Below, piece after piece: positions 4,201-64,000 of a stretch of 64,000 bases of DNA. The stretch comes from Tubiluchus corallicola (Eukaryota > Priapulida > Priapulimorpha > Priapulimorphida > Tubiluchidae): the NCBI GenBank assembly GCA_030141605.1, contig JAQGDQ010001036.1:1-64000 (forward strand). Reading direction: 5' to 3'. A program made the translations under genes and the position numbers. The stretch's first letter is position 1. Each line of letters opens with the position of its first letter. The notes beneath the pieces were generated by a model. The model was not told where the DNA came from. It worked only from the letters and a program-made list of their open reading frames with translations, and did not search any database.

Positions 4201-7200
4201 GCAACCTACCTTCCGTACACGTAGGGAACTGGCTTCACTTTTTCCCTCTCGATGCGATGCAGAAGAGGTGTGAATATTCTCCAGGCTTCGGCGAGCTCGT
4301 CCGTCCGCACAAAGTGCATTTGAGTTCCGCAAAACACATCAAGAATCAACCTCTCGTACGCGTCGGGCATGACCACACCCTGCAAGAATCACGAACAGGT
4401 GAGAAGGCGAAATTTCCATACCTTCAATTGCGTTTAATCATATGACGAAATTCAGAAGAAGAAGAAGCAAAGCCATTGTTCTGACGTCATCCATTATACT
4501 CTGTCTATAACTTTAATTCAGTAAAAGCTGCTGCTGGCTTTGCGTTAGGTAAGTAAACAAACACTAGGTAGGATGTTTGCGTATTTTTGATTACACGTGT
4601 ATTTATACGCAAAATTTTTTGCGAGGCCTTTGTTAGTTAATTAATTAATTAAACTGGGTCTGACTGTAAAAATGCAAAGCAAACAAAAAATATTCGTAAC
4701 TAGAATGCTAAAAGATTTCATTTGACTCTGCCAAGGCCAGAGGTCACACCTTGTAACGGCTGCCGTATGTCAGATCCAGTTCCGTTTCCTCAGCGCCAAA
4801 CGACATGCCGGGTGTCTTCGTCATCATCTTGCAGTAAACGGCCTCGTTGGGCTGCACACGTACGACCAGTTCGTTACGCTTCGTTGTCTGCTGAAATATG
4901 TCGCCCGGTACGTCTTTGAACTGGATGCGAATCTCCGCTTTTCGCTCGTTAAGTGCTGCGAAAAACACCAGGGATAAAAATTACAAATTGCAAAAAAGTC
5001 TGAAACAGGCCGTAGGCAGCAACAAATTGCAATTTTGTGACCATAGAGAACCTCTAAATGGACTTAAAATATCAGTTACCTTGTTTCATGCATAATTTAA
5101 AATACCCAACTATCAAGGATACATGATACCTAATTGTCTCAAAAATGCCTAAGTACTGGCCGCTCCTATGCAAAAGTATATAAAAACTGTCTGCAATTGA
5201 CTCAAATAACTCCGCACAATTAATTCTATATTTTTATACATAGAGATATACACGTGGTTACACTGATGTACGTGATGTAAACAAAGTGACGGCCTGCCAC
5301 CTAGCGGTCAGATTGTGAAATAATGTACTGGGTCAGTAAAAATTTTCTCAACGAATTTACGCGATTTACAAAAAAGGCACTACTGGTCTTCCAAAAACTC
5401 GGAATTTCGCGTATCCGCAGAAAATTCTCATCCCTGAAACACGAAAAGCTCAAATGCTATTTTCCACCAATCAATTTGTCATTGGGGCTTTTTGGAATCT
5501 AACGTTCCTAGGTAAAGTAACTGTCCGATGTGAGATGGTGTTCGTCGAAGCACTTGTAAAAGACACCCACATGACCGAGTAGCTCAGTATTTTCCCGTTT
5601 CTAAATAGATAAAAATTTGCCTCCAAATACCTCAACAAGTTCCAGTAAGATGACTTTTGTACACGGTGTACAAGCAATGAGTAAAATGGCCATTTTTGAG
5701 GGGGTTTTCCACTTCCTAGAGGTACTTGAGGGGGTCTTAGAGGCAAACTTATAAGTTTTTCAAAGGAAGAGAAACCGGATTATACGACGATGTGTGCCTT
5801 TTACAAATGCCTCTACCAGGATGAAGGTTTAAACGTTAGTTTGGGGAGGGCTATTTTTTCATGACTCATGACTTATTTCTCATTAAAAAAGATTCATTTC
5901 TCTTCAACAAAAACAAAAGAGCAGCTCTGATTAAATAATTAGGTTTCTCATGCCCATTTTCAAAAATAGGGCAGAAAGAGGACAAGAGGAGAAACACGGA
6001 GGAAAAGAGTCATCCCAACGTGTGCTATAATCTTCGTTAGTTTAAACATAATTTATTATAGGATTGGATCAGACAGTTTGAACAACATGATTTAGGGTAC
6101 TCACCACAACAGACTTTATACACTATTTACAAGAACATTTACAGTAAGACTAGACTATAACTACACAAGCTGACAAGTTTTACTACAAGATTACATTAGA
6201 CATTAGTAACATTTACAGTAAGAATAGACTATAACTACACAAGCTGACAAGTTTTACTACAAGATTACATTAGACATTAGTAACATTTACAGTAAGAACA
6301 GACTATAACTACACAAGCTGACAAATTTTACTACAAGATTACATTAGACATAAGTAGAAAATGACGGTTAGAAAGTATTAATGTACGAATATTTAAGACT
6401 GATGCGTTTCATATTAGATAGAACGTAACATAAAGTCATGTATGCATTGGAATACTTTACAGTTAGCAACATAGTTAAATTCATCTTTTCCGAAAAATAA
6501 CAACTTCAACAGATCATTAGTTCCTGGGTCATTAGACCATTGATTAATCTTCGTTAATCAATACAGAAATGCACTTTCTTACTGAGGCAACTACTTTTTA
6601 AAACAAACATTTCTATTATCACAAAAGTTCAAGAGTTTACTCATTTCCACACTGCATCATTAAAATACTTGCTGTCCATCCACAAACCAATGACGACAAT
6701 TGAAGGTGACCAGTGGTCACAGTTTCATGCTACTGAATCTGCTTAATACAGCGTGATTACTTTTGCCACACAGGAGGACAAAGAGGGAAGAAAAACCTCA
6801 TCCCAATGTCTGTTGTAATATTTGTTAATCAATACAGAAATGCACTTTCTTACTTTTTTTAAAACAAACATCTGTTGCCACAAACATGAACTGCTGTCCA
6901 ATTATAAACAAGTGACGTCAAATCAAGGTGACCAGTAATTCAGGGATGAGAATGACAAATTGCAAAAAACTCTGAAACAGGCCGGGGGGTTTGAGGGCCG
7001 CGTACGCCATAGAGAACCTCTAAGTGGACTTAAAATATCAATTACCTTGTTTCATGCATAATTCAAAATATCCAACTATCAAGGATACATGATACCTAAT
7101 TGTCTCAAAAACACCTAAGTACTGGCCGCTCTTATGCAAAAGTATATCAAAGCTGTCTGCAATTGACTCAAATAACAATAATGGCACTACTGGTCTTCCA

Positions 7201-10200
7201 AAAACTTGGAATTCCGCATATCAGTGGAAAATTCTCATCCCTGCTAATTACAGTTTCATGCTACTGAATCTGCTGAATACAGCATGATTACCTTTCCCAC
7301 AGCGCATAATGAACGGCACTCCCTCCCATCTCTCGTTATTGATGTACCCGACAACAGTAGCATACGTGGGTGTGACGGAGCCTGAAAGAAGAGGGCGCTT
7401 TTTTAATTACGAAAGCAAAAACGCCAGTGAATAGTGAAATCAAAGCAACATTTACCAAAAAAGAATTGACCTTTTGGCTATGTTTGACATTTTAATTGTA
7501 GCATTCACAAATTGTGAGGTGTGCCTTAACCAGTCAGTTTAGTTGTCAGACATTAATAAGCCTTTTCACTGTTCCAGCGATTGATGACAATCGTGAAAAG
7601 GTCAAAGGTTAAGTGCACCAGACAACTTACTTGTGTGCACACTTGACATGCCTCGCAGCCCATGCTACTATAACAATAACAGTTTTAACATATTTTAACA
7701 GCTAGCTAGAGCTTTACCTAGTTCATTTTTTCTTGTTACCAAGCAAGATCCTGCTAGTAAATCATTCTACGCACAGACTAATGCAAAATTAAGTCAAGTT
7801 TACGTAAAACAACTGAAGTTACTAAACTGACACGGCAGCCGGATTTGTTTCACACGCACATTACATGATGGTTTAGTAAAGACGTGTTGCTGTGGAATGC
7901 TTAACCTTTCACCTACAGCAATTTCATGTGCGCACAACGAAACTGTGAAAAGTTCTTATTGTTCTCTATTCCACCTAAACCAACAAATACATTGCTAAAG
8001 ACATAGAAATGTACCACTAAGAACCTTTTATATCAAACTGTTCAGAATTTCTGACAGTCATATCACAATTATAAACAGTAAGTTGTTAAGCACGACGAAT
8101 ACAAAAATGCAGTACTAAAGTCCACACACACAACTCATTTACCATATCCTTAAAATTCCCAATAATAACAATAATAGATATGTATGCTGGCATGGCAAAA
8201 ATGTGAATAATTTGGCAGTTAAACTTTTCTAGTTATTCACATGTGCTGAATCGCCATTTCATGAGAATCATTTTGATACCAAGCTCATCGCTTTAGCTTA
8301 TTTCTAAGCTGAAATAATCCACATTGAAGTTGAGGTGTAGTCTCTGCAGTGAAAAACATAATCTTGAGAAAACTGCTCATTATCATTGTTTTGTATCAGG
8401 CTTCTCCAAAAACACTTAGCAGCTGTACAAAAGTTTGGTTGCTAAGGACTACGCAAGAACACATTCAGCTTATGTTTAAATCCTGTAGATGGCTCTTTCA
8501 GACAAAGATCTGGGCTTGATAACAGAAAAACAAATGTGGTCACAGGTCACACATTATTGATCTACCTTTGGGTACGGTGGGGTCATCTAGGTAGCCCTCC
8601 TTCTCGTCACCTTGCCCGTTAGGATTACCAACATACTGACCGAGCACAGTGTTGCTTAACTGTAAAGCAGGCATGCTCTTCAAAACCTTTACCTGCGCAA
8701 AAGAACAATACTGTGAATTTCTGGATTAGTTTCCATTGAAATACTGTTGAAGTTATAAATCAGACACTAATTCATACTACTTTAGGCCATTCAAAATAAG
8801 TCTTATAAGACCCGCGACTTTTTTGTTACCGTATGGGCACAGACATAACTAAATTATTACAAATTAGGTATTATTCTATTCAGGAGAATCTCGACTATCC
8901 AATCACCTTGTTTGTTTAAACATTTACAAGTGATTTAATTGGATAAAATGAAGACATACATGCCCTTTTCAGGCACTCCAACTTAGCCTATCGAGTAGCT
9001 TAGTCTGGTGTACGCTTGCATAGTACATACTAATTTGTTGATCAGCTGCTTGCTGCAGTTCAAGAGAATCATCTGCTGTGCAGAGTTCCAAGAAAAATCA
9101 ACTGATCGGCCAGGGAGAAATTAAGGTCATTTCATCTTTTAACAGGAATTTCTCCTTAAAAATAGAGTAGACTTGAGGCCAATGCATATCAGAGTGTTGT
9201 GTCTGGATGGCTGAAATTTTCTACATTAGCTGATTTCACTGTTAGTGATACTGTACATTGTTAAAGTGCAAACACTGCGGTTACTGAAAGCTTTCCATCA
9301 CATATTGATTTTTAATATGTCTAAGATAAGGAAATGCATTTCATACATAATTTTGCACGAAAATCCATTGTGTGAGGAGTAGAAACCTACAAAAATAATC
9401 AAGTATAGTTGCTGCTTGGTAAGAGCAGTTTTTCACGAACCCCGTGCAAAATGAAGCAAACTTATGGTCCCGAAGGAGTGAATATTGAAGCATTACTGTG
9501 CACTCATAGTGAAGAGAAATCATGCCATTCAAGGCCCATTTTACGCTACAACAGATACACACACGTGTGACGAAGCACAACAAACTTGAGGATTGGCACC
9601 TTTTCATTTCGAATGTCATCTGCCGATGTGGATGCTGGCTTCTCCATGGCAACCAAGGTCAGCATCTGGAGCACATGATTCTGCATTACGTCCCTGAGCA
9701 GAAATGTAAAGGAAAATCCTATTAGGGATTTTTCAATTTCAAGCAAGCAAAACACTGAAAATCAGCAAAATTTTATCAATATACTGTAAGTATTGTTAGA
9801 AATTAAGTGCTTTCACGTTTACGTTTTAAAATATTGAAAGGAAACATACTATTTTTTTTCAAAAATGACTTACGTCATTTACCACACAAACAAACTTTCA
9901 CGTTCGCACCACTAGTTCTTCGCTGTTACAGGTATTTCACTATTTGCTAGTTAGACGGGCTCTAGCGCCTGCATTTCAGAAACGTATTGCACAAAAAACA
10001 TGTGCTGTACCTCTCAGTTCAGGTGTGTTAGTTTGTGACGAACTACACATGTTTGACAGCTCATGCATGAACGCAGCAGAAAATTTAAAATTTGAATTTT
10101 TATCTTCAAACTTGCCTAGTTTTAGTACAACACTACGAATATCTTACAGTAGCACTGTACTTCAATTTTCGCTTTCGCAAACACGTGCAATACGCTCGTG

Positions 10201-13200
10201 GAATATTTTTGCAGTTGAAAATTATTTTTGTTTTTGATGTCATCAATAGTTGGACTCACCCGCCGTTAATTAAGTTTTTAATCTATTATTTAATTATCAG
10301 AAACACTTTTTCAGTATTAATCGTGTTAAAATGCATACTTTTTATCGGACTTGAAAAACGGGGTAGTGTATGAAAAATCATCCTGTCTTCTTTTAAGGAA
10401 TAGTGCTTTAGCAACAAAATTAATATAATAAGAGCGTAAAACTAATACTATTACATAATAGAAATGATAAATCACTGACTAAAAAATTCATACCTGATTA
10501 TTCCGAATTCGTCAAAATAGCCGCCACGCCCCTGAGTGCCAAATGGCTCTTTGAAACTTAATGTAATGGCAGCTATGGAGTCTCTGTTCCAGACTGGTCC
10601 CCAAATTCTATTGCCAAACCTTAAAATGCAAAAAAAAATTCCATTTGCTTACGAGTTCTTGTGAAGCTGTACTGGTTCTTGTCTGATCAGTGAAGTTAAG
10701 CAAAATAGAGCCTGCTTAGTACTTGGATGTGTGATCGCCTAAGAATACCAGGTGCTGTAGGCTATGCTTACGCTGTTAGCCGCAGATAGGAGTGGATGGA
10801 ATACTCTGATAAGTGTTGATACGTCAATGTCTACAATAGATGGAATGAGAATTTGAAGAAGAAGAAGAGAATGTTAGAGCGGAGTGTGCGAGTGGACACC
10901 AGTGGGATTCGAACCTGAAACCCCTGGACAGCCAAGTGCCGTACCTCGCAAGCTGTTACGAAAATGCCAACAGGTCTGACTTACCAGCTTGCAATGTCAT
11001 GTATCTCATTTCAAATTGACATGGCAGAACTCTACGCAATTTTCTACACAGGTTAAAAACAATAAGAAACAAACCCTCCTACCTATCAATGGTATTAGCG
11101 TACGTCTCGTACGAAATGCAACTTTTCTGCTGCATTGCCAAAAAACAGGGATGAGAATGACAAATTGCAAAAAACTCTGAAACACAGAAATTTTCTCAAC
11201 GAATTTACGCGATTTACAAAAATGGCACTACTGGTCTTCCAAAAACTCGGAATTCTGTATATCCGCAGAAAATTCCCATCCCTGAAAAAAGGCTAAAGCT
11301 ACACATGCAATGATGCATTTCCAAAAATCATTATTTTCCCATTATGATCAATCAATGCTAATGCACCAATTTTGTGCAAAGTATTCCCTGATAGCTTTGG
11401 CGACACAAAACCCCGCCGCATCTAAGAACGTTGCTATGGCAACGAACGCACCTGAGTATCATGAGATTCTGCACCATCTCCTTCCCGAGGTAGTGGTCAA
11501 TCCTGTACAGCTGTTCCTCCGTGAACAGAGCAGAGAGGTGATTCGACAGTTTGGAGGACGATTCAAGGTCCTTTCCAAATGGCTTCTCGACGATGACTCG
11601 TGTCCAACCTCTGTAATGCAATGTTATTAAAGTTATAATTCCCATCTTTCATGCTGCTCAAGGTCAACCAACAATAAAGATTTCTGCAACATTATAAGCT
11701 TTCAGATAAAATGACCTCTAGTATACAAAAGATTAGATTATAAAAGTACATTTATTCACTTCATAGCAATATTTATAGTTTTTGCAAACCCAAATATACC
11801 GTATCACACACACTATAAGATGTCTTATATTGCGTTCACACCAGCGAATTTTCCGTAGCAAGTTTTCTCTTCGACAGCAAACTCGCAAGTGTAAACTACA
11901 CCTCCATGATTTCCACTGTTGCCATCACCACTGCTGCTGTCCACCACCGCCATCAAGAGTACTGCCATTTTCATCAACACGAGCTTCATCGCATCATTTA
12001 AAAAGTAGATTTACTTTGTGTGGCGTAATTCAAAGCACATTGCAAAATACAGGATCGAAAACAAAACTCACAACACAGCAGACTGCAGCACACATTCAGC
12101 AATAACAGCAATCTTTTCTGCAATTTTTTTTCAATTCAATTCAAAACGTGCATTTATTTCCATACTCATGATATAACTGAGGCAAGTAAATGTATTTAAA
12201 TATCACAATGGAAATAGGATGGTGAAAGACCAAGAAGCTCAACTAGTCACTAGTTTTAACCCACGTTTTTGTGATAACCCACATTTTTGGCTATAGCCAT
12301 TTTGTGGCCAAAACATTAGCTTTCTGGCCAACAGAGGACAGCACCACTGTTTATCTTCACAAGTCTGATTCAAAAAGAGTGCTTGACATGCACAGGTATC
12401 ATTACTACTTGTATACATGTCAGTTAATCAGCATATTAAGCATGACGGTATAGTCTCGTCATACAGGCCAGTCAGAATAGCAATTTGAATAACAAATGTG
12501 CAAGAGAACAACCACAGAATCAAACCAAGCGACCGAAATCTATATGCTACTATGTGCAAAAACAGGAATCATTACGACATTTCAAATTAACAGCAAAACA
12601 AAGTAAACTGAGAGACAACAAATTACGTCACGTTAGCCTGCGGTGCCATCAAAGATTTCCGCTCTCTCTCTTCTCTACCACAGAATTTAAGAGCGTAAAA
12701 CAGTTAGATTGTACAACAACAACAACTACAACAATGTTGCATTCAACTTATTATTATTTTGTGCGGGTGTCAACTCTTTCTACCGTGCATTTTGCATTGC
12801 GGTGAGAAGGAGTTTGAAAGCAACACGAACTTGCCGTAAAACTCACCTGTCCGATGTCGAACTAACAGAAATGGAAATAAATAATCTTCAGTAAAAGAAC
12901 AAGAATTTTTCGTAAATTTTTCGTAAAAACAAGAATGAACAGAAAATGTGTAAGAAAAGAGGAAAAAGCATTGAAGAACTTGCTAAATGTGTTTGAACAG
13001 ATGGAAAAGTATTGAAGAACTTGCTAAATGTGTATGAACAGGTGGAAAAGTATTGAAGAACTTGCTAAATGTGTATGAACAGGTGGAAAAGTATTGAAGA
13101 ACTTGCTAAATGTGTATGAACAGGTGGAAAAGTATTGAAGAACTTGCTAAATGTGTATGAACAGGTGGAAAAGTATTGAAGAACTTGCTAAATGTGTATG

Positions 13201-16200
13201 AACAGGTGGAAAAGTATTGAAGAACTTGCTAAATGTGTATGAACAGGTAGAAAAGTATTTAAGAACTTGCTAAATGTGTATGAACAGATGGAAAAGTATT
13301 TAAGAACTTGCTAAATGTGTATGAACAGGTGGAAAAGTATTGAAGAACTTGCTTAATGTGTATGAACAGATGGAAAAGTATTGAAGAACTTGCTAAATGT
13401 GTATGAACAGATGGAAAAGTATTGAAGAACTTGCTAAATGTGTTTGAACAGATGGAAAAGTATTGAAGAACTTGCTAAATGTGTATGAACAGGTGGAAAA
13501 GTATTGAAGAACTTGCTAAATGTGTATGAACAGATGGAAAAGTATTGAAGAACTTGCTAAATGTGTTTGAACAGATGGAAAAGTATTGAAGAACTTGCTA
13601 AATGTGTATGAACAGGTGGAAAAGTATTGAAGAACTTGCTAAATGTGTATGAACAGGTGGAAAAGTATTGAAGAACATGCTAAATGTGTATGAACAGATG
13701 GAAAAGTAATGAAGAACTTGCTAAATGTGTATGAACAGGTGGAAAAGTATTGAAGAACTTGCTAAATGTGTATGAACAGGTGGAAAAGTATTGAAGAACT
13801 TGCTAAATGTGTATGAACAGGTGGAAAAGTATTGAAGAACTTGCTAAATGTGTATGAACAGGTGGAAAAGTATTGAAGAACTTGCTAAATGTGTATGAAC
13901 AGGTGGAAAAGTATTGAAGAACTTGCTAAATGTGTATGAACAGGTGGAAAAGTATTGAAGAACTTGCTAAATGTGTATGAACAGATGGAAAAGTATTGAA
14001 GAACTTGCTAAATGTGTATGAACAGATGGAAAAGTATTGAAGAACTTGCTAAATGTGTATGAACAGATGGAAAAGTATTGAAGAACTTGCTAAATGTGTA
14101 TGAATAGGTGGAAAAGTAATGAACAACTTGCTAAATGTGTATGAACAGATGGAAAAGTATTGAAGAGTTTGCTAAATGTGTTTTTTATAAGTTCAGCACA
14201 GTGCACATGCTCAATAGCATGTTGGCAGTGTGGCAGGACTGGACACTATCTCACCTCACTACCAACAATGATCTTCTAAAATGATATTCTGAATTCGCAG
14301 AGAAATGTTATCGCACACAACGATTGTATTTCAACTCCTTGCCTCCAAGAATAAAATTACTATAGCTCTATTATATCGGGTGGAGCATAAAAAACGTGCC
14401 AAAGCTTAGACTAGAATAACGTTAGAAGCAAGAGCCCTACAAGCTCAAAATTCCACAGCACGATTTCACAGTTCATTGGCTTATGGCGGAGAAAGTTTCA
14501 AGTTTATAGATTTAGCAATTTTTAAGTTGTGACCAAAAAACTTTTGGATTTTAAAGATTTAAAATGCTGGAATAATGCCAACTAATTGTCATTTGAAAAA
14601 TCGACACGATAGGTAAAACACATTCAACATGGCGGCAAAACAATAAAGAAATTAATCAGTTTATATAATGGTGGTATTCGCCTCAAAAGTAAAGCACTTG
14701 CTAATATTTGTCGTCAAGAAAAAATGTAACTCAATTCTCTGGACTACGGTATCTGGAATTTCCTTAACCCTTTCACTACGGAAGGCGGCACACTACCACC
14801 CATGTTTTTCATAAACGGGACAGAAGGTGGTGGACTGCCGCCAAAGCTCAGCACTAAGCGCAGTCACCCAGGTCTGTTTATTTCACTGCTACAGCCACGC
14901 AAAAATATTGTAGAGAAGTCTAACAGCCGTGGGATTGGGGTTGCTTGGCAACAAGTAATGCTAACCAGCGAATCAGTGTCTGAAGCCAGGTGCATTCCAC
15001 AATACTGTACTGTATAGTACGTTCTCACGCAAAACTGCTTGTTGATAGTTGATGAAATGCGCGTTTAGTTGATTGTTCTGCATTCTTGTAAAAAGATTGC
15101 ATATTATGGATTAGTATTGTGTCCTTTGTGAAAACTGATTTCCAAATATAAGTACACGCTTATTTATGAAGGTGTGCACGTGTGTAGGTGCATGAGTGCA
15201 CGTATGTGTGCTCGTGTGTGTTTGCATGTGTAGAAACAAAACTAATATTTAATATTGGTACTCAATGACGAACAACTACTTGTTTATTTACAAGATTTTG
15301 TTTCAGTAACACACCACAAGAAGTTATTGTCAAATGTGCAAACATCAATGTGGCCCAGTCAAAAAGTAACAACGTAGTGAAAGGGTTAAAGAAAAAGTAC
15401 ACAATGGCTGCACAGAACAGTTCGATCTAAAGCAGAGGAACCAAGGGCAAAAACTCTTGCAAGTCCGAATGAAAGACCCTCTTAAGGAAGTGAGAAAGTC
15501 TATAAGCTGTTGCAAGAAACACCTACATCTAGTTTACGCTGAAATAGTGGACATACACTGACCACTCACTGTAAATTTGAACAGTAGTGACACAGTTAAG
15601 CTGAGTTTTTCCGACATTCATTTTTTTTACTCGTTCTTTTAAATCTTCTGTATCTTTGGAAAGATCTAATCAAATGATCTAAAATCATTTGTGTTTTATG
15701 CACAAATGTCTGCAAAATTAGTGTGGTAATATTCAAGCGATTCTGTTATTTTCTTTGTACAATATCGTGTACGAAACTTTGGCACATTTTTTTGTGTCAA
15801 CTTATATAAACCTACTTTTTCCCCATGCAGGTGGCTTGTATATTCGTTGTTACCACCATGAATACGCTGGGTGGTAGTGCTAGGTAGAACAGCCGATTGG
15901 CAGCAGCCTTTCCCTCAAGCCTCTCTATGGCTGCGTTGAGCTTCGCGAACGCCTCTTTCTGGTCGTAAGCTCCGGCTAAATAACTGTTGACAGACCAGAA
16001 TTTCTCCAGTTTGCCTTTGTCTTCGCTTTTTACCTGTTTAATAACATGACAGTAAAGAAAATGACGGGGCGCATTTCCAGTAAGCCTGAACATGAACAAA
16101 AATTTAAGATCGATGGTGAACTTTTAATTATAGAAAAGAATCAATATCAGAAAGATTTTTTTGTTTTACAAAAATTTTTCACATTGGAAAAATGAATCCT

Positions 16201-16798
16201 AATTCCATTGAACATTGTCTTTAAGAGGCAAAAAGCACAAGCTTAAGATGTAAAAACACAAGCTTAAGATGCAAAAATCACAAGTTTAAGATGTAAAAAC
16301 ACAAGCTTAAGATGCAAAAAACACCAGCTTAAGATGCAAAAAACACAAGCTTAAGATGTAAAAACACCAGCTTAAGATGTAAAAAACACAAGGCTAAGAT
16401 GCAAAAAACACAAGCTTAAGATGTAAAAAACACAAGTCTAAGATGCAAAAAACACAAGCTTAAGATGTAAAAACACAAGCTTTAATTTCCATTTTTGTCC
16501 AAAACATATAATTGACTATTGGCGAATTAGCAGTGATAAAAACCATCAATATTATCAAGACTTTAGCTAAAACAGATATGCAAAACTATACCTTCATATA
16601 CGGTTCAGCCTTTTTTCTAATGTCACTCACAGTTAAGTTTGACCTGGCATAGCCAATGAAAGATGTACCATTTGGAATCAACCCAGTGCTATACAACAAC
16701 CTGTGCAGTAAAAACAACTTCATTTTTCAGAAAAAGTAACAAACAGCTCAGTGTTTTGGATGCGTTTATCAAAAAACTTTTATGATTTAAATATATAC

Positions 16799-16831
<33 letters not shown>

Positions 16832-51341: not shown

Positions 51342-51372
<31 letters not shown>

Positions 51373-51669: not shown

Positions 51670-51702
<33 letters not shown>

Positions 51703-54700
51703 GTATATATTTAAATCATAAAAGTTTTTTGATAAACGCATCCAAAACACTGAGCTGTTTGTTACTTTTTCTGAAAAATGAAGTTGTTTTTACTGCACAG
51801 GTTGTTGTATAGCACTGGGTTGATTCCAAATGGTACATCTTTCATTGGCTATGCCAGGTCAAACTTAACTGTGAGTGACATTAGAAAAAAGGCTGAACCG
51901 TATATGAAGGTATAGTTTTGCATATCTGTTTTAGCTAAAGTCTTGATAATATTGATGGTTTTTATCACTGCTAATTCGCCAATAGTCAATTATATGTTTT
52001 GGACAAAAATGGAAATTAAAGCTTGTGTTTTTACATCTTAAGCTTGTGTTTTTTGCATCTTAGACTTGTGTTTTTTACATCTTAAGCTTGTGTTTTTTGC
52101 ATCTTAGCCTTGTGTTTTTTACATCTTAAGCTGGTGTTTTTACATCTTAAGCTTGTGTTTTTTGCATCTTAAGCTGGTGTTTTTTGCATCTTAAGCTTGT
52201 GTTTTTACATCTTAAACTTGTGATTTTTGCATCTTAAGCTTGTGTTTTTACATCTTAAGCTTGTGCTTTTTGCCTCTTAAAGACAATGTTCAATGGAATT
52301 AGGATTCATTTTTCCAATGTGAAAAATTTTTGTAAAACAAAAAAATCTTTCTGATATTGATTCTTTTCTATAATTAAAAGTTCACCATCGATCTTAAATT
52401 TTTGTTCATGTTCAGGCTTACTGGAAATGCGCCCCGTCATTTTCTTTACTGTCATGTTATTAAACAGGTAAAAAGCGAAGACAAAGGCAAACTGGAGAAA
52501 TTCTGGTCTGTCAACAGTTATTTAGCCGGAGCTTACGACCAGAAAGAGGCGTTCGCGAAGCTCAACGCAGCCATAGAGAGGCTTGAGGGAAAGGCTGCTG
52601 CCAATCGGCTGTTCTACCTAGCACTACCACCCAGCGTATTCATGGTGGTAACAACGAATATACAAGCCACCTGCATGGGGAAAAAGTAGGTTTATATAAG
52701 TTGACACAAAAAAATGTGCCAAAGTTTCGTACACGATATTGTACAAAGAAAATAACAGAATCGCTTGAATATTACCACACTAATTTTGCAGACATTTGTG
52801 CATAAAACACAAATGATTTTAGATCATTTGATTAGATCTTTCCAAAGATACAGAAGATTTAAAAGAACGAGTAAAAAAAATGAATGTCGGAAAAACTCAG
52901 CTTAACTGTGTCACTACTGTTCAAATTTACAGTGAGTGGTCAGTGTATGTCCACTATTTCAGCGTAAACTAGATGTAGGTGTTTCTTGCAACAGCTTATA
53001 GACTTTCTCACTTCCTTAAGAGGGTCTTTCATTCGGACTTGCAAGAGTTTTTGCCCTTGGTTCCTCTGCTTTAGATCGAACTGTTCTGTGCAGCCATTGT
53101 GTACTTTTTCTTTAACCCTTTCACTACGTTGTTACTTTTTGACTGGGCCACATTGATGTTTGCACATTTGACAATAACTTCTTGTGGTGTGTTACTGAAA
53201 CAAAATCTTGTAAATAAACAAGTAGTTGTTCGTCATTGAGTACCAATATTAAATATTAGTTTTGTTTCTACACATGCAAACACACACGAGCACACATACG
53301 TGCACTCATGCACCTACACACGTGCACACCTTCATAAATAAGCGTGTACTTATATTTGGAAATCAGTTTTCACAAAGGACACAATACTAATCCATAATAT
53401 GCAATCTTTTTACAAGAATGCAGAACAATCAACTAAACGCGCATTTCATCAACTATCAACAAGCAGTTTTGCGTGAGAACGTACTATACAGTACAGTATT
53501 ATGGAACGCACCTGGCTTCAGACACTGATTCGCTGGTTAGCATTACTTGTTGCCAAGCAACCCCAATCCCACGGCTGTTAGACTTCTCTACAATATTTTT
53601 GCGTGGCTGTAGCAGTGAAATAAACAGACCTGGGTGACTGCGCTTAGTGCTGAGCTTTGGCGGCAGTCCACCACCTTCTGTCCCGTTTATGAAAAACATG
53701 GGTGGTAGTGTGCCGCCTTCCGTAGTGAAAGGGTTAAGGAAATTCCAGATACCGTAGTCCAGAGAATTGAGTTACATTTTTTCTTGACGACAAATATTAG
53801 CAAGTGCTTTACTTTTGAGGCGAATACCACCATTATATAAACTGATTAATTTCTTTATTGTTTTGCCGCCATGTTGAATGTGTTTTACCTATCGTGTCGA
53901 TTTTTCAAATGACAATTAGTTGGCATTATTCCAGCATTTTAAATCTTTAAAATCCAAAAGTTTTTTGGTCACAACTTAAAAATTGCTAAATCTATAAACT
54001 TGAAACTTTCTCCGCCATAAGCCAATGAACTGTGAAATCGTGCTGTGGAATTTTGAGCTTGTAGGGCTCTTGCTTCTAACGTTATTCTAGTCTAAGCTTT
54101 GGCACGTTTTTTATGCTCCACCCGATATAATAGAGCTATAGTAATTTTATTCTTGGAGGCAAGGAGTTGAAATACAATCGTTGTGTGCGATAACATTTCT
54201 CTGCGAATTCAGAATATCATTTTAGAAGATCATTGTTGGTAGTGAGGTGAGATAGTGTCCAGTCCTGCCACACTGCCAACATGCTATTGAGCATGTGCAC
54301 TGTGCTGAACTTATAAAAAACACATTTAGCAAACTCTTCAATACTTTTCCATCTGTTCATACACATTTAGCAAGTTGTTCATTACTTTTCCACCTATTCA
54401 TACACATTTAGCATGTTCTTCAATACTTTTCCATCTGTTCATACACATTTAGCAAGTTCTTCAATACTTTTCCATCTGTTCATACACATTTAGCAAGTTC
54501 TTCAATACTTTTCCATCTGTTCATACACATTTAGCAAGTTCTTCAATACTTTTCCACCTATTCATACACATTTAGCAAGTTCTTCAATACTTTTCCACCT
54601 GTTCATACACATTTAGCAAGTTCTTCAATACTTTTCCACCTGTTCATACACATTTAGCAAGTTCTTCAATACTTTTCCACCTGTTCATACACATTTAGCA

Positions 54701-57700
54701 AGTTCTTCAATACTTTTCCACCTGTTCATACACATTTAGCAAGTTCTTCAATACTTTTCCACCTGTTCATACACATTTAGCAAGTTCTTCATTACTTTTC
54801 CATCTGTTCATACACATTTAGCATGTTCTTCAATACTTTTCCACCTGTTCATACACATTTAGCAAGTTCTTCAATACTTTTCCACCTGTTCATACACATT
54901 TAGCAAGTTCTTCATTACTTTTCCATCTGTTCAAACACATTTAGCAAGTTCTTCAATACTTTTCCATCTGTTCATACACATTTAGCAAGTTCTTCAATAC
55001 TTTTCCACCTGTTCATACACATTTAGCAAGTTCTTCAATACTTTTCCATCTGTTCAAACACATTTAGCAAGTTCTTCAATACTTTTCCATCTGTTCATAC
55101 ACATTTAGCAAGTTCTTCAATACTTTTCCATCTGTTCATACACATTTAGCAAGTTCTTCAATACTTTTCCACCTGTTCATACACATTTAGCAAGTTCTTC
55201 AATACTTTTCCATCTGTTCATACACATTTAGCAAGTTCTTCAATACTTTTCCACCTGTTCATACACATTTAGCAAGTTCTTCAATACTTTTCCACCTGTT
55301 CATACACATTTAGCAAGTTCTTCAATACTTTTCCACCTGTTCATACACATTTAGCAAGTTCTTCAATACTTTTCCACCTGTTCATACACATTTAGCAAGT
55401 TCTTCAATACTTTTCCACCTGTTCATACACATTTAGCAAGTTCTTCAATACTTTTCCACCTGTTCATACACATTTAGCAAGTTCTTCAATACTTTTCCAT
55501 CTGTTCAAACACATTTAGCAAGTTCTTCAATGCTTTTTCCTCTTTTCTTACACATTTTCTGTTCATTCTTGTTTTTACGAAAAATTTACGAAAAATTCTT
55601 GTTCTTTTACTGAAGATTATTTATTTCCATTTCTGTTAGTTCGACATCGGACAGGTGAGTTTTACGGCAAGTTCGTGTTGCTTTCAAACTCCTTCTCACC
55701 GCAATGCAAAATGCACGGTAGAAAGAGTTGACACCCGCACAAAATAATAATAAGTTGAATGCAACATTGTTGTAGTTGTTGTTGTTGTACAATCTAACTG
55801 TTTTACGCTCTTAAATTCTGTGGTAGAGAAGAGAGAGAGCGGAAATCTTTGATGGCACCGCAGGCTAACGTGACGTAATTTGTTGTCTCTCAGTTTACTT
55901 TGTTTTGCTGTTAATTTGAAATGTCGTAATGATTCCTGTTTTTGCACATAGTAGCATATAGATTTCGGTCGCTTGGTTTGATTCTGTGGTTGTTCTCTTG
56001 CACATTTGTTATTCAAATTGCTATTCTGACTGGCCTGTATGACGAGACTATACCGTCATGCTTAATATGCTGATTAACTGACATGTATACAAGTAGTAAT
56101 GATACCTGTGCATGTCAAGCACTCTTTTTGAATCAGACTTGTGAAGATAAACAGTGGTGCTGTCCTCTGTTGGCCAGAAAGCTAATGTTTTGGCCACAAA
56201 ATGGCTATAGCCAAAAATGTGGGTTATCACAAAAACGTGGGTTAAAACTAGTGACTAGTTGAGCTTCTTGGTCTTTCACCATCCTATTTCCATTGTGATA
56301 TTTAAATACATTTACTTGCCTCAGTTATATCATGAGTATGGAAATAAATGCACGTTTTGAATTGAATTGAAAAAAAATTGCAGAAAAGATTGCTGTTATT
56401 GCTGAATGTGTGCTGCAGTCTGCTGTGTTGTGAGTTTTGTTTTCGATCCTGTATTTTGCAATGTGCTTTGAATTACGCCACACAAAGTAAATCTACTTTT
56501 TAAATGATGCGATGAAGCTCGTGTTGATGAAAATGGCAGTACTCTTGATGGCGGTGGTGGACAGCAGCAGTGGTGATGGCAACAGTGGAAATCATGGAGG
56601 TGTAGTTTACACTTGCGAGTTTGCTGTCGAAGAGAAAACTTGCTACGGAAAATTCGCTGGTGTGAACGCAATATAAGACATCTTATAGTGTGTGTGATAC
56701 GGTATATTTGGGTTTGCAAAAACTATAAATATTGCTATGAAGTGAATAAATGTACTTTTATAATCTAATCTTTTGTATACTAGAGGTCATTTTATCTGAA
56801 AGCTTATAATGTTGCAGAAATCTTTATTGTTGGTTGACCTTGAGCAGCATGAAAGATGGGAATTATAACTTTAATAACATTGCATTACAGAGGTTGGACA
56901 CGAGTCATCGTCGAGAAGCCATTTGGAAAGGACCTTGAATCGTCCTCCAAACTGTCGAATCACCTCTCTGCTCTGTTCACGGAGGAACAGCTGTACAGGA
57001 TTGACCACTACCTCGGGAAGGAGATGGTGCAGAATCTCATGATACTCAGGTGCGTTCGTTGCCATAGCAACGTTCTTAGATGCGGCGGGGTTTTGTGTCG
57101 CCAAAGCTATCAGGGAATACTTTGCACAAAATTGGTGCATTAGCATTGATTGATCATAATGGGAAAATAATGATTTTTGGAAATGCATCATTGCATGTGT
57201 AGCTTTAGCCTTTTTTCAGGGATGGGAATTTTCTGCGGATATACAGAATTCCGAGTTTTTGGAAGACCAGTAGTGCCATTTTTGTAAATCGCGTAAATTC
57301 GTTGAGAAAATTTCTGTGTTTCAGAGTTTTTTGCAATTTGTCATTCTCATCCCTGTTTTTTGGCAATGCAGCAGAAAAGTTGCATTTCGTACGAGACGTA
57401 CGCTAATACCATTGATAGGTAGGAGGGTTTGTTTCTTATTGTTTTTAACCTGTGTAGAAAATTGCGTAGAGTTCTGCCATGTCAATTTGAAATGAGATAC
57501 ATGACATTGCAAGCTGGTAAGTCAGACCTGTTGGCATTTTCGTAACAGCTTGCGAGGTACGGCACTTGGCTGTCCAGGGGTTTCAGGTTCGAATCCCACT
57601 GGTGTCCACTCGCACACTCCGCTCTAACATTCTCTTCTTCTTCTTCAAATTCTCATTCCATCTATTGTAGACATTGACGTATCAACACTTATCAGAGTAT

Positions 57701-60700
57701 TCCATCCACTCCTATCTGCGGCTAACAGCGTAAGCATAGCCTACAGCACCTGGTATTCTTAGGCGATCACACATCCAAGTACTAAGCAGGCTCTATTTTG
57801 CTTAACTTCACTGATCAGACAAGAACCAGTACAGCTTCACAAGAACTCGTAAGCAAATGGAATTTTTTTTTGCATTTTAAGGTTTGGCAATAGAATTTGG
57901 GGACCAGTCTGGAACAGAGACTCCATAGCTGCCATTACATTAAGTTTCAAAGAGCCATTTGGCACTCAGGGGCGTGGCGGCTATTTTGACGAATTCGGAA
58001 TAATCAGGTATGAATTTTTTAGTCAGTGATTTATCATTTCTATTATGTAATAGTATTAGTTTTACGCTCTTATTATATTAATTTTGTTGCTAAAGCACTA
58101 TTCCTTAAAAGAAGACAGGATGATTTTTCATACACTACCCCGTTTTTCAAGTCCGATAAAAAGTATGCATTTTAACACGATTAATACTGAAAAAGTGTTT
58201 CTGATAATTAAATAATAGATTAAAAACTTAATTAACGGCGGGTGAGTCCAACTATTGATGACATCAAAAACAAAAATAATTTTCAACTGCAAAAATATTC
58301 CACGAGCGTATTGCACGTGTTTGCGAAAGCGAAAATTGAAGTACAGTGCTACTGTAAGATATTCGTAGTGTTGTACTAAAACTAGGCAAGTTTGAAGATA
58401 AAAATTCAAATTTTAAATTTTCTGCTGCGTTCATGCATGAGCTGTCAAACATGTGTAGTTCGTCACAAACTAACACACCTGAACTGAGAGGTACAGCACA
58501 TGTTTTTTGTGCAATACGTTTCTGAAATGCAGGCGCTAGAGCCCGTCTAACTAGCAAATAGTGAAATACCTGTAACAGCGAAGAACTAGTGGTGCGAACG
58601 TGAAAGTTTGTTTGTGTGGTAAATGACGTAAGTCATTTTTGAAAAAAAATAGTATGTTTCCTTTCAATATTTTAAAACGTAAACGTGAAAGCACTTAATT
58701 TCTAACAATACTTACAGTATATTGATAAAATTTTGCTGATTTTCAGTGTTTTGCTTGCTTGAAATTGAAAAATCCCTAATAGGATTTTCCTTTACATTTC
58801 TGCTCAGGGACGTAATGCAGAATCATGTGCTCCAGATGCTGACCTTGGTTGCCATGGAGAAGCCAGCATCCACATCGGCAGATGACATTCGAAATGAAAA
58901 GGTGCCAATCCTCAAGTTTGTTGTGCTTCGTCACACGTGTGTGTATCTGTTGTAGCGTAAAATGGGCCTTGAATGGCATGATTTCTCTTCACTATGAGTG
59001 CACAGTAATGCTTCAATATTCACTCCTTCGGGACCATAAGTTTGCTTCATTTTGCACGGGGTTCGTGAAAAACTGCTCTTACCAAGCAGCAACTATACTT
59101 GATTATTTTTGTAGGTTTCTACTCCTCACACAATGGATTTTCGTGCAAAATTATGTATGAAATGCATTTCCTTATCTTAGACATATTAAAAATCAATATG
59201 TGATGGAAAGCTTTCAGTAACCGCAGTGTTTGCACTTTAACAATGTACAGTATCACTAACAGTGAAATCAGCTAATGTAGAAAATTTCAGCCATCCAGAC
59301 ACAACACTCTGATATGCATTGGCCTCAAGTCTACTCTATTTTTAAGGAGAAATTCCTGTTAAAAGATGAAATGACCTTAATTTCTCCCTGGCCGATCAGT
59401 TGATTTTTCTTGGAACTCTGCACAGCAGATGATTCTCTTGAACTGCAGCAAGCAGCTGATCAACAAATTAGTATGTACTATGCAAGCGTACACCAGACTA
59501 AGCTACTCGATAGGCTAAGTTGGAGTGCCTGAAAAGGGCATGTATGTCTTCATTTTATCCAATTAAATCACTTGTAAATGTTTAAACAAACAAGGTGATT
59601 GGATAGTCGAGATTCTCCTGAATAGAATAATACCTAATTTGTAATAATTTAGTTATGTCTGTGCCCATACGGTAACAAAAAAGTCGCGGGTCTTATAAGA
59701 CTTATTTTGAATGGCCTAAAGTAGTATGAATTAGTGTCTGATTTATAACTTCAACAGTATTTCAATGGAAACTAATCCAGAAATTCACAGTATTGTTCTT
59801 TTGCGCAGGTAAAGGTTTTGAAGAGCATGCCTGCTTTACAGTTAAGCAACACTGTGCTCGGTCAGTATGTTGGTAATCCTAACGGGCAAGGTGACGAGAA
59901 GGAGGGCTACCTAGATGACCCCACCGTACCCAAAGGTAGATCAATAATGTGTGACCTGTGACCACATTTGTTTTTCTGTTATCAAGCCCAGATCTTTGTC
60001 TGAAAGAGCCATCTACAGGATTTAAACATAAGCTGAATGTGTTCTTGCGTAGTCCTTAGCAACCAAACTTTTGTACAGCTGCTAAGTGTTTTTGGAGAAG
60101 CCTGATACAAAACAATGATAATGAGCAGTTTTCTCAAGATTATGTTTTTCACTGCAGAGACTACACCTCAACTTCAATGTGGATTATTTCAGCTTAGAAA
60201 TAAGCTAAAGCGATGAGCTTGGTATCAAAATGATTCTCATGAAATGGCGATTCAGCACATGTGAATAACTAGAAAAGTTTAACTGCCAAATTATTCACAT
60301 TTTTGCCATGCCAGCATACATATCTATTATTGTTATTATTGGGAATTTTAAGGATATGGTAAATGAGTTGTGTGTGTGGACTTTAGTACTGCATTTTTGT
60401 ATTCGTCGTGCTTAACAACTTACTGTTTATAATTGTGATATGACTGTCAGAAATTCTGAACAGTTTGATATAAAAGGTTCTTAGTGGTACATTTCTATGT
60501 CTTTAGCAATGTATTTGTTGGTTTAGGTGGAATAGAGAACAATAAGAACTTTTCACAGTTTCGTTGTGCGCACATGAAATTGCTGTAGGTGAAAGGTTAA
60601 GCATTCCACAGCAACACGTCTTTACTAAACCATCATGTAATGTGCGTGTGAAACAAATCCGGCTGCCGTGTCAGTTTAGTAACTTCAGTTGTTTTACGTA

Positions 60701-63700
60701 AACTTGACTTAATTTTGCATTAGTCTGTGCGTAGAATGATTTACTAGCAGGATCTTGCTTGGTAACAAGAAAAAATGAACTAGGTAAAGCTCTAGCTAGC
60801 TGTTAAAATATGTTAAAACTGTTATTGTTATAGTAGCATGGGCTGCGAGGCATGTCAAGTGTGCACACAAGTAAGTTGTCTGGTGCACTTAACCTTTGAC
60901 CTTTTCACGATTGTCATCAATCGCTGGAACAGTGAAAAGGCTTATTAATGTCTGACAACTAAACTGACTGGTTAAGGCACACCTCACAATTTGTGAATGC
61001 TACAATTAAAATGTCAAACATAGCCAAAAGGTCAATTCTTTTTTGGTAAATGTTGCTTTGATTTCACTATTCACTGGCGTTTTTGCTTTCGTAATTAAAA
61101 AAGCGCCCTCTTCTTTCAGGCTCCGTCACACCCACGTATGCTACTGTTGTCGGGTACATCAATAACGAGAGATGGGAGGGAGTGCCGTTCATTATGCGCT
61201 GTGGGAAAGGTAATCATGCTGTATTCAGCAGATTCAGTAGCATGAAACTGTAATTAGCAGGGATGAGAATTTTCCACTGATATGCGGAATTCCAAGTTTT
61301 TGGAAGACCAGTAGTGCCATTATTGTTATTTGAGTCAATTGCAGACAGCTTTGATATACTTTTGCATAAGAGCGGCCAGTACTTAGGTGTTTTTGAGACA
61401 ATTAGGTATCATGTATCCTTGATAGTTGGATATTTTGAATTATGCATGAAACAAGGTAATTGATATTTTAAGTCCACTTAGAGGTTCTCTATGGCGTACG
61501 CGGCCCTCAAACCCCCCGGCCTGTTTCAGAGTTTTTTGCAATTTGTCATTCTCATCCCTGAATTACTGGTCACCTTGATTTGACGTCACTTGTTTATAAT
61601 TGGACAGCAGTTCATGTTTGTGGCAACAGATGTTTGTTTTAAAAAAAGTAAGAAAGTGCATTTCTGTATTGATTAACAAATATTACAACAGACATTGGGA
61701 TGAGGTTTTTCTTCCCTCTTTGTCCTCCTGTGTGGCAAAAGTAATCACGCTGTATTAAGCAGATTCAGTAGCATGAAACTGTGACCACTGGTCACCTTCA
61801 ATTGTCGTCATTGGTTTGTGGATGGACAGCAAGTATTTTAATGATGCAGTGTGGAAATGAGTAAACTCTTGAACTTTTGTGATAATAGAAATGTTTGTTT
61901 TAAAAAGTAGTTGCCTCAGTAAGAAAGTGCATTTCTGTATTGATTAACGAAGATTAATCAATGGTCTAATGACCCAGGAACTAATGATCTGTTGAAGTTG
62001 TTATTTTTCGGAAAAGATGAATTTAACTATGTTGCTAACTGTAAAATATTCCAATGCATACATGACTTTATGTTACGTTCTATCTAATATGAAACGCATC
62101 AGTCTTAAATATTCGTACATTAATACTTTCTAACCGTCATTTTCTACTTATGTCTAATGTAATCTTGTAGTAAAATTTGTCAGCTTGTGTAGTTATAGTC
62201 TGTTCTTACTGTAAATGTTACTAATGTCTAATGTAATCTTGTAGTAAAACTTGTCAGCTTGTGTAGTTATAGATTCTTACTGTAAATGTTACTAATGTCT
62301 AATGTAATCTTGTAGTAAAACTTGTCAGCTTGTGTAGTTATAGTCTAGTCTTACTGTAAATGTTCTTGTAAATAGTGTATAAAGTCTGTTGTGGTGAGTA
62401 CCCTAAATCATGTTGTTCAAACTGTCTGATCCAATCCTATAATAAATTATGTTTAAACTAACGAAGATTATAGCACACGTTGGGATGACTCTTTTCCTCC
62501 GTGTTTCTCCTCTTGTCCTCTTTCTGCCCTATTTTTGAAAATGGGCATGAGAAACCTAATTATTTAATCAGAGCTGCTCTTTTGTTTTTGTTGAAGAGAA
62601 ATGAATCTTTTTTAATGAGAAATAAGTCATGAGTCATGAAAAAATAGCCCTCCCCAAACTAACGTTTAAACCTTCATCCTGGTAGAGGCATTTGTAAAAG
62701 GCACACATCGTCGTATAATCCGGTTTCTCTTCCTTTGAAAAACTTATAAGTTTGCCTCTAAGACCCCCTCAAGTACCTCTAGGAAGTGGAAAACCCCCTC
62801 AAAAATGGCCATTTTACTCATTGCTTGTACACCGTGTACAAAAGTCATCTTACTGGAACTTGTTGAGGTATTTGGAGGCAAATTTTTATCTATTTAGAAA
62901 CGGGAAAATACTGAGCTACTCGGTCATGTGGGTGTCTTTTACAAGTGCTTCGACGAACACCATCTCACATCGGACAGTTACTTTACCTAGGAACGTTAGA
63001 TTCCAAAAAGCCCCAATGACAAATTGATTGGTGGAAAATAGCATTTGAGCTTTTCGTGTTTCAGGGATGAGAATTTTCTGCGGATACGCGAAATTCCGAG
63101 TTTTTGGAAGACCAGTAGTGCCTTTTTTGTAAATCGTGTAAATTCGTTGAGAAAATTTTTACTGACCCAGTACATTATTTCACAATCTGACCGCTAGGTG
63201 GCAGGCCGTCACTTTGTTTACATCACGTACATCAGTGTAACCACGTGTATATCTCTATGTATAAAAATATAGAATTAATTGTGCGGAGTTATTTGAGTCA
63301 ATTGCAGACAGTTTTTATATACTTTTGCATAGGAGCGGCCAGTACTTAGGCATTTTTGAGACAATTAGGTATCATGTATCCTTGATAGTTGGGTATTTTA
63401 AATTATGCATGAAACAAGGTAACTGATATTTTAAGTCCATTTAGAGGTTCTCTATGATCACAAAATTGCAATTTGTTGCTGCCTACGGCCTGTTTCAGAC
63501 TTTTTTGCAATTTGTAATTTTTATCCCTGGTGTTTTTCGCAGCACTTAACGAGCGAAAAGCGGAGATTCGCATCCAGTTCAAAGACGTACCGGGCGACAT
63601 ATTTCAGCAGACAACGAAGCGTAACGAACTGGTCGTACGTGTGCAGCCCAACGAGGCCGTTTACTGCAAGATGATGACGAAGACACCCGGCATGTCGTTT

Positions 63701-63748
63701 GGCGCTGAGGAAACGGAACTGGATCTGACATACGGCAGCCGTTACAAG
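47142..63748 (+). CDS. G6PD: Glucose-6-phosphate 1-dehydrogenase, right-arm copy, 3' end beyond window
   Basis: This is the mirror copy of the left gene. Plus-strand exons: 47142-47240, 49533-49570, 51801-51909, 52468-52685, 56891-57049, 57882-58007, 58808-58901, 59809-59935, 61120-61209, 63543-63748. They encode the first 422 residues, including the GASGDLAKKK cofactor motif, [10 protein letters not shown] and the catalytic histidine. Every splice site of the left copy is conserved and I saw no stop or frameshift in an exon. Exons 11 and 12 should follow after base 64000 if the arm continues. An in-frame TAG about 57 bases before the ATG, with no ATG between, supports this start. Whether this is a second functional gene or an assembly duplicate cannot be decided from the sequence. 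Confidence 0.93.
47427..47861 (-). mobile_element. CAGGGATGAGAAT-TIR MITE, truncated (mirror copy)
   Basis: Mirror of 20640-21074. Confidence 0.72.
48711..48881 (-). mobile_element. Retroposon 3' tail (mirror copy)
   Basis: Mirror of 19620-19790. Confidence 0.4.
49726..50520 (-). mobile_element. Second piggyBac-like MITE candidate (mirror copy)
   Basis: Mirror of 17981-18775. Confidence 0.6.
50721..50798 (+). mobile_element. Fragment of a foldback repeat family (mirror copy)
   Basis: Mirror of 17703-17780. Confidence 0.55.
51182..51698 (-). repeat. (ATGT)n and (ATC/ACC)n microsatellite (mirror copy)
   Basis: Mirror of 16803-17319, equal in length, with at least one substitution in the trinucleotide tract. 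Confidence 0.97.
52019..52275 (-). repeat. About 20-bp minisatellite (mirror copy)
   Basis: Mirror of 16226-16482. Confidence 0.92.
53112..53737 (-). mobile_element. piggyBac-like MITE with TTAA target sites (mirror copy)
   Basis: Mirror of 14764-15389, with two substitutions near 53501-53510. Confidence 0.82.
54322..55541 (-). repeat. 41-bp minisatellite, about 30 copies (mirror copy)
   Basis: Mirror of 12960-14179. Flanking exons keep the pairing sum of 68501 on both sides, so no unit was gained or lost. Confidence 0.95.
56261..56379 (+). mobile_element. Retroposon 3' tail (mirror copy)
   Basis: Mirror of 12122-12240. Confidence 0.35.
57217..57355 (-). mobile_element. CAGGGATGAGAAT-TIR MITE, short form (mirror copy)
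   Basis: Mirror of 11146-11284. Confidence 0.75.
57536..57606 (+). pseudogene. tRNA-like sequence with intact B box (mirror copy)
   Basis: Mirror of 10895-10965; B box at 57586-57596. Confidence 0.45.
57738..57833 (-). pseudogene. 5S rRNA-derived sequence (mirror copy)
   Basis: Mirror of 10668-10763, upstream of G6PD exon 6 (57882). Confidence 0.75.
60161..60293 (-). mobile_element. Half copy of the foldback MITE (mirror copy)
   Basis: Mirror of 8208-8340. Confidence 0.6.
61258..61560 (-). mobile_element. CAGGGATGAGAAT-TIR MITE, internally deleted (mirror copy)
   Basis: Mirror of 6941-7243, just after G6PD exon 9 (ends 61209). Confidence 0.8.
62146..62364 (-). repeat. 74-bp tandem repeat, 3 copies (mirror copy)
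   Basis: Mirror of 6134-6355. The middle unit lacks 3 bases relative to the left arm, which shifts the arm pairing sum from 68501 to 68498. Confidence 0.92.
63062..63529 (-). mobile_element. CAGGGATGAGAAT-TIR MITE, long form (mirror copy)
   Basis: Mirror of 4969-5436. Here it precedes G6PD exon 10 (63543), and its T-rich end TTTTTATCCCTG lies directly upstream of the acceptor. Confidence 0.8.
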
Positions 63749-64000
63749 GTGTGACCTCTGGCCTTGGCAGAGTCAAATGAAATCTTTTAGCATTCTAGTT
63801 ACGAATATTTTTTGTTTGCTTTGCATTTTTACAGTCAGACCCAGTTTAATTAATTAATTAACTAACAAAGGCCTCGCAAAAAATTTTGCGTATAAATACA
63901 CGTATAATCAAAAATACGCGAACATCCTACCTAGTGTTTGTTTACTTACCTAACGCAAAGCCAGCAGCAGCTTTTACTGAATTAAAGTTATAGACAGAGT

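What the first reader, a model, noticed from the sequence alone, without database searches (positions are those of the whole stretch)
4498..64000. Giant near-perfect inverted repeat: two 28.6 kb arms around a 2.4 kb spacer
Nearly the whole window is a palindrome with arms about 99.9 percent identical, carrying mirror copies of G6PD, GNS and every transposon between them. Biological palindromes of this size occur on sex chromosomes, in amplified or fold-back regions and at inversion-duplications. The same structure also arises from an unsplit hairpin read or mis-joined haplotypes. The substitutions and two indels show that the arms are not one sequence simply copied in silico.
Basis: seen in the sequence. 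Interest (0 to 1): 0.92.

Follow-up and report, generated by a model that had tools for sequence, protein, structure and literature searches.

The report
False palindrome from genome misassembly
A huge mirror-image stretch of animal DNA turns out to be, most likely, an assembly error that folds a contig back on itself in the middle of a gene, so it is not a natural palindrome.

Summary
The inverted repeat is really in the sequence, but most likely not in the animal's chromosome. The window is bases 1-64,000 of the 68,497-base contig C1680 of a 343.5 Mb animal assembly. The whole contig is a palindrome: 33.06 kb arms, 2.39 kb spacer, base 1 pairing base 68,497.

The right junction is native: an intact solo LTR with a 5-bp target duplication spans it, and the right arm's GNS gene continues across it into the spacer (exon 5). 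The left junction cuts both. Later GNS exons lie on another contig, C1409, which ends 1.1 kb from exon 6; exons 5 and 6 join in frame with no residue missing. So the spacer should lead towards C1409, not into an inverted arm.

Of 52 other contigs testable, 2 also have base-exact mirror ends, and three separate contigs share one identical end.

Best reading: a misassembly, seeded by an inverted fold-back chimera at a (TAG)n repeat or by a false graph walk. No reads were available, C1409 does not overlap the spacer, and a real inverted duplication is not fully excluded.

The parts
1..33057 (+). Left arm of the palindrome (inverted copy of 35,445-68,497 of contig C1680; the window ends at 64,000)
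35445..64000 (-). Right arm; continues for 4,497 further bases to the contig end at 68,497 (L009)
33058..35444 (.). Spacer, 2,387 bp; natively continuous with the right arm
33058..33091 (+). (TAG)11 microsatellite at the left junction: the inferred false join
34390..35562 (+). Intact solo LTR (TG...CA, 1,173 bp) spanning the right junction; 98-99% identical to the 7 other genomic copies aligned
34385..34389 (+). Target-site duplication AATAC, 5' side of the solo LTR
35563..35567 (+). Target-site duplication AATAC, 3' side of the solo LTR
32940..33057 (-). Truncated tail of the same LTR in the left arm (the rest is missing)
33277..33396 (-). GNS exon 5 match in the spacer (coding 33,286-33,384 by its splice sites), continuing the right arm's GNS gene
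36767..42613 (-). GNS exons 1-4 in the right arm (42,613; 40,002; 38,600; 36,844), leading into exon 5 in the spacer; exons 1, 2 and 4 are weak single matches (E 0.002-0.03), exon 3 is strong
25888..31734 (+). GNS exons 1-4 in the left arm, cut off at the left junction
4176..18968 (-). G6PD (multi-exon animal gene) in the left arm; C-terminal exons shown mirrored on + in the right arm
1..3480 (.). 33-bp minisatellite arrays (1-462, and 1,437-3,480 in the opposite orientation) at the outer contig end, identical at both contig ends

Best explanation
C1680 is a misassembled contig. Shown: the native local order is arm (G6PD, GNS exons 1-4) - solo LTR - spacer with GNS exon 5, and the 3' half of a GNS gene lies at the end of another contig, C1409. 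Inferred: the spacer's outer end is followed, across an unassembled gap, by C1409. The left junction joins the spacer's outer end, in a (TAG)n repeat, to a second, inverted copy of the arm starting inside the LTR. The likeliest seed is an inverted chimeric or fold-back molecule: a strand ending in the repeat switched to the complementary strand about 2.4 kb back and copied the arm in reverse, the geometry described for multiple-displacement-amplification chimeras and long-read fold-back artefacts. The assembler then walked the same (or the other allele's) arm path out to the same dead end, giving mirror ends on the same base. The 0.1% arm differences would be allelic variants or separate polishing. 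The confidence given is for misassembly as such; about 0.65 of it is for the chimera-seeded form and 0.25 for the haplotype-join form listed among the rivals.
For: Gene split: GNS exon 5 is in the spacer on the minus strand, in order with right-arm exons 1-4. Six GNS matches from query residue 178 to 484 lie on C1409 minus strand, 220,296 down to 210,074; no C1409 row covers the earlier part and no C1680 row the later part at E 0.001. C1409 ends at 221,400, 1.1 kb past exon 6. Exon 5 donor (ATT|GTAAGT) and exon 6 acceptor (TTGCAG|CAC) join in frame with no residue missing relative to human GNS. Right junction native: solo LTR with AATAC on both sides; 7 of 7 other copies aligned run across it, 6 of 7 to the LTR end; the left arm holds only the LTR tail. 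Base-exact mirror ends, no unique flanks. 2 of 52 testable other contigs are flush-ended palindromes. C2286, C2245 and C1545 end on the same base with identical last 400 bases and an identical 4 kb further in. Arm sequence at 4-8 kb, G6PD exons and GNS exon 3 were found only in C1680's arms, apart from dispersed repeats and diverged or other gene copies. Published artefact geometry: 337 of 475 MDA chimeras were inverted joins less than 10 kb apart (PMC1855051, passages); fold-back reads are 0.55-0.6% of ONT genomic reads, one example with about 2 kb between mappings (PMC12870357, passages).
Against: No reads or depth could be examined. C1409's end does not overlap the spacer and does not end in the TAG repeat, as I had hoped it would, so their adjacency rests on one split gene. 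A second GNS-like gene exists (C911), so C1409 could in principle belong to an unassembled paralogue. The spacer occurs nowhere else, so the assembly holds no competing placement of it. The arms differ by 33 substitutions (22 transitions to 4 transversions outside one minisatellite) and 2 indels, so they are not letter copies. In C1672 a 42-bp array has 26 units in one arm and about 37 in the other, which suggests different reads or alleles there. Fold-back reads were virtually absent from the PacBio HiFi data of PMC12870357; the platform used here is unknown, so the chimera step is inferred.
Confidence: 0.9

Rival explanations
1. Two allelic haplotypes of one single-copy locus were joined head to head by the assembler, without any chimeric molecule. 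This is another form of the misassembly verdict and its odds are part of the 0.9 given there.
For: The pieces tested occur at full identity only as the two copies in C1680; differences are transition-rich like alleles; the assembly repeats identical terminal sequence in several contigs.
Against: The two ends share only a TAG-rich stretch of a few tens of bases, little to justify an overlap without a chimeric read.
Confidence: 0.25
2. A real inverted duplication (fold-back inversion) of the G6PD-GNS region exists in the sequenced animal, on one haplotype or in some cells, formed by template switching at the TAG repeat, with the normal arrangement on the other haplotype.
For: The left junction lies in a repeat whose motif is also in the LTR, as expected of template switching; arm differences are transition-rich like real variants.
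Against: An intact allele (arm - spacer - C1409) should then also be assembled; G6PD exons and GNS exon 3 were found only in C1680's arms, apart from diverged or other gene copies. Mirror ends on the same base and recurrence in 2 of 52 testable contigs are not predicted.
Confidence: 0.05
3. A stable chromosomal palindrome with arms kept alike by gene conversion, as on sex chromosomes.
For: Arm length, 99.9% identity and a 2.4 kb spacer resemble known ampliconic palindromes (recalled, no call).
Against: GNS would be broken in both copies while its 3' half sits alone on C1409; no unique flanks; the only exon-split G6PD of the assembly, apart from a diverged fragment on C970, is here.
Confidence: 0.02
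4. A free linear palindromic minichromosome, like protist rDNA palindromes, that ends at the contig ends.
For: End-to-end symmetry of the whole contig.
Against: Carries the assembly's only exon-split G6PD gene, bar a diverged fragment, and half of GNS; ends in 33-bp minisatellite, and no telomere repeat is seen in the first 200 bases of either end.
Confidence: 0.01

Closest known systems
Inverted chimeras of multiple displacement amplification (Lasken and Stockwell 2007, PMC1855051; Pacasus paper, PMC6218980; passages seen)
   Same: Inverted join with an intervening deletion of a few kb, one side native; inverted duplications carried into assembled contigs (PMC6218980)
   Different: Whether this sample was amplified is unknown; no reads examined
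Long-read fold-back artefact reads (Breakinator paper, PMC12870357; passages seen)
   Same: Near-palindromic molecules, in one published example with about 2 kb between the arms; said to tangle assembly graphs
   Different: Those are single reads; here a whole 68.5 kb contig is involved and the sequencing platform is unknown
Sex-chromosome ampliconic palindromes (recalled)
   Same: Long arms, over 99.8% identity, small spacer
   Different: No unique flanks, mirror ends on the same base, a gene cut at one junction with its remainder on another contig

Membership tests
Fold-back / inverted-chimera misassembly | One junction native, the other breaks features that continue elsewhere | tested here: met
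   LTR with target duplication and GNS cross the right junction; both are cut at the left; GNS 3' half on C1409
Fold-back / inverted-chimera misassembly | Joined segments lie within about 10 kb of each other in the source DNA | tested here: met
   2,387 bp between the joined points
Fold-back / inverted-chimera misassembly | Recurs at unrelated loci of the same assembly | tested here: met
   C1672 and C672, 2 of 52 testable contigs; whether their junctions are false was not tested
Fold-back / inverted-chimera misassembly | Short complementarity at the junction | tested here: inconclusive
   TAG/CTA-rich on both sides but not flush
Fold-back / inverted-chimera misassembly | Minority or no read support for the false junction | not testable with these tools
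   no reads available
Natural chromosomal palindrome | Arms embedded in different unique flanks | tested here: not met
   contig ends on the same base in both arms
Natural chromosomal palindrome | Junctions do not cut genes whose remainder lies elsewhere | tested here: not met
   GNS split between C1680 and C1409
Natural chromosomal palindrome | Arm depth twice single-copy depth | not testable with these tools
   no reads available
Palindromic minichromosome | Telomere repeats at both ends | tested here: not met
   the first 200 bases of both ends, printed, are 33-bp minisatellite

The most novel reading that the evidence does not exclude
The sequenced animal really carries a fold-back inverted duplication of the G6PD-GNS region made by template switching at a TAG repeat, on one haplotype or in part of its cells. 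The other palindromic contigs (2 of 52 testable) would then reflect many such events genome-wide.
Probability: 0.05. Interest if true: 0.6.

Novelty: not a real feature. Interest (0 to 1): 0.1.

Why it matters
As biology it most likely does not. As a warning it does: 2 of 52 testable contigs sampled in this assembly, besides this one, are base-exact palindromes. Gene copy numbers (G6PD counted twice, GNS as two broken copies), synteny and inverted-repeat surveys drawn from it would be misleading until such contigs are checked and split. The anatomy gives a read-free test for such artefacts: look for an element with its target duplication and a gene that cross one junction intact and are cut at the other, then find the gene's other half elsewhere.

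Tried and rejected
Rejected: unsplit-adapter hairpin read as sole cause (the 2.39 kb spacer holds a gene exon and most of an LTR). Rejected: window-limited 28.6 kb arms. Considered: that arm differences prove real duplication; they fit alleles or separate polishing equally. Prediction not met: that C1409 would end in the TAG repeat. Led nowhere: tRNA scan (0 genes); Pfam on two spacer ORFs (no family); naming the species (best G6PD hit 81%, Glandiceps talaboti); a first paper search (listing only). Not answered: own-genome DNA searches of the outer piece 463-1,436, the inner arm 27,900-33,057, pieces 3,490-4,500 and 17,500-20,600, and a COX1 family search (not completed). So absence of the arms elsewhere rests, in which only the best candidates were scored, and not on a full scan. 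From the third survey batch of 20 the three largest contigs (C1477, C1707, C1937) were dropped before fetching ends; of the 57 contigs with both ends fetched, 5 had masked starts (C1671, C1684, C845, C787, C2052), leaving 52. The survey compared only 400-600 bases at each end, so palindromes without flush ends would be missed.
Full report
OBSERVATION. Self-alignment confirms the inverted repeat (4,498-33,080 against 64,000-35,423, 99.88%). The window is bases 1-64,000 of contig C1680 in a genome of 343.5 Mb and 2,344 contigs. C1680 has only 68,497 bases. With the last 4,497 bases added, the whole contig is a palindrome in which base 1 pairs with base 68,497. Between 1-33,057 and its mirror there are 33 substitutions and 2 indels. 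Outside a 41-bp minisatellite, 22 of 26 substitutions are transitions, and they are strongly clustered (11 gaps of 100 bases or less against 1.9 expected from 20,000 random placements, none of which reached 11). The first difference is at 3,635; a difference-free stretch of that length at the end has a probability of about 0.05 under even spread. The (TATG)22, CAT and 41-bp arrays have equal length in both arms.

WHICH JUNCTION IS NATIVE. The sequence 34,390-35,562 is a dispersed LTR. One search listed many copies; the seven best (L002-L008) were aligned, all seven run continuously across the right junction, and six reach 35,562-35,563 while L002 stops at 35,531. The copy here starts TGTGACG, ends GTCACA and is flanked by AATAC on both sides: an intact solo LTR with its target-site duplication. 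The left arm holds only its last 120-140 bases, followed by (TAG)11. GNS tells the same story. Exons 1-4 lie in both arms, but exon 5 lies in the spacer on the minus strand, so it belongs to the right arm's gene. Exon 3 (E 2e-19) and exon 5 (E 2e-11) are strong matches; exons 1, 2 and 4 are weak on their own (E 0.002-0.03) but in order.

WHERE THE GENE GOES. Searching the genome with GNS (70 matches from 79 candidates) found later exons on C1409, minus strand, in six matches from 220,296 down to 210,074, covering query residues 178-484. C1409 has no listed match to the earlier part and C1680 none to the later part. One other locus with short, exon-like early and middle matches is C911, which has its own match for residues 263-316 and so does not need C1409. 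One further short match (residues 396-446) is on C210. Most other rows are long open frames, probably bacterial sulfatases (inference). C1409 has 221,400 bases, so it ends 1.1 kb upstream of exon 6. Exon 5 ends at a GTAAGT donor and exon 6 begins after a TTGCAG acceptor; joined, they read ...DYLTDVI-HRKAMSFLRDHARHPRNPFFMM..., in frame and with the same number of residues as human ...[27 protein letters not shown].... C1409's end does not overlap the spacer and is not a TAG repeat, so a gap lies between them. The inference is that the chromosome runs arm - LTR - spacer - gap - C1409 and that the left junction of C1680 is false.

IS THIS CONTIG ALONE? I fetched both ends of 57 further contigs: 20 neighbours of C1680, 20 spaced through the list and 17 of another 20 (the three largest dropped). 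Five had masked starts. Of 52 testable contigs, two are palindromes with mirror ends on the same base: C1672 (49,415 bases) and C672 (95,026 bases; its interior was not looked at). In C1672 the outer 9 kb differ by 4 substitutions and the spacer is about 3.9 kb, and a 42-bp array differs in copy number between arms. Separately, C2286, C2245 and C1545 end on the same base with identical last 400 bases. They are identical over 4 kb about 53-57 kb from that end, and C2286 and C1545 still match about 68-71 kb from it, where C2245 gave no match at the tested offset. So this assembly repeats one terminal stretch in several contigs, and a palindromic contig can be that behaviour applied to both ends of one spacer (inference).

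COPIES ELSEWHERE. The 4,000-8,000 piece matches at full length only the two arms; other rows are short dispersed repeats. The G6PD C-terminal domain is found exon by exon only in the two arms of C1680, apart from one weak exon on C970, a diverged copy; three intron-free full-length matches (C1761, C295, C735) look bacterial. The unique part of the spacer occurs nowhere else. If the palindrome were a real extra structure, an ordinary allele of this locus should also be assembled; none was seen in these searches. Searches of the inner arm and outermost piece did not complete (see Tried and rejected).

MECHANISM. Shown: anatomy, gene split, mirror ends, recurrence of mirror-ended contigs. Inferred: the false join arises when a strand ending in the spacer's TAG repeat continues on the complementary strand about 2.4 kb back, at a TAG-rich spot in the LTR. 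In MDA, 406 of 475 chimeras were inverted, 337 of them joining segments less than 10 kb apart (PMC1855051, passages). Inverted duplications from amplified reads were seen in an assembled gorilla Y and were not detected after read correction (PMC6218980, passages), and roughly a third of mitochondrial reads were palindromic in MDA tardigrade data, impairing assembly (PMC13265396, passages). Fold-back reads occur in ONT genomic data at 0.55-0.6%, one example with about 2 kb between the mappings, and were virtually absent from the PacBio HiFi data examined there (PMC12870357, passages). Which of these applies is unknown because the library type is unknown. A head-to-head join of two haplotypes by the assembler alone is the main alternative form of the same verdict.

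VERDICT. The strongest single fact is that one junction cuts a gene whose in-frame continuation lies 1.1 kb inside the end of another contig.

Noticed in passing
C672 (95,026 bases) and C1672 (49,415 bases) of G000: Two further contigs with base-exact mirror ends, found among 52 testable contigs
   Followed up: partly
C2286 end, C2245 end, C1545 start: Three contigs end on the same base with identical last 400 bases, and are identical again over 4 kb about 53-57 kb further in. C31 and C1798 give the same sulfatase match at the same coordinates, perhaps the same phenomenon; not checked.
   Followed up: partly
C970:25,500-30,500 (L119): Diverged partial copy of the G6PD 3' region (82-93% in pieces), probably an old duplicate or pseudogene
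   Followed up: partly
window 10,647-10,763 and 27,064-27,184, mirrored at 57,738-57,854 and 41,317-41,437: 5S rRNA-like sequences (44 and 75 bits) inside the arms; could be 5S-derived repeats
   Followed up: no
C1761, C295, C735 and several sulfatase contigs of G000: Intron-free full-length G6PD and long sulfatase frames suggest bacterial contigs in an animal assembly
   Followed up: no
C911 and C210 of G000: A second GNS-like locus with short exon-like matches on C911, and a further short GNS match on C210
   Followed up: no
window 33,427-33,689: Short self-complementary stretch (82%) inside the spacer
   Followed up: no
window 1-462 and 1,437-3,480: The same 33-bp minisatellite in opposite orientations at the outer contig end
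   Followed up: no
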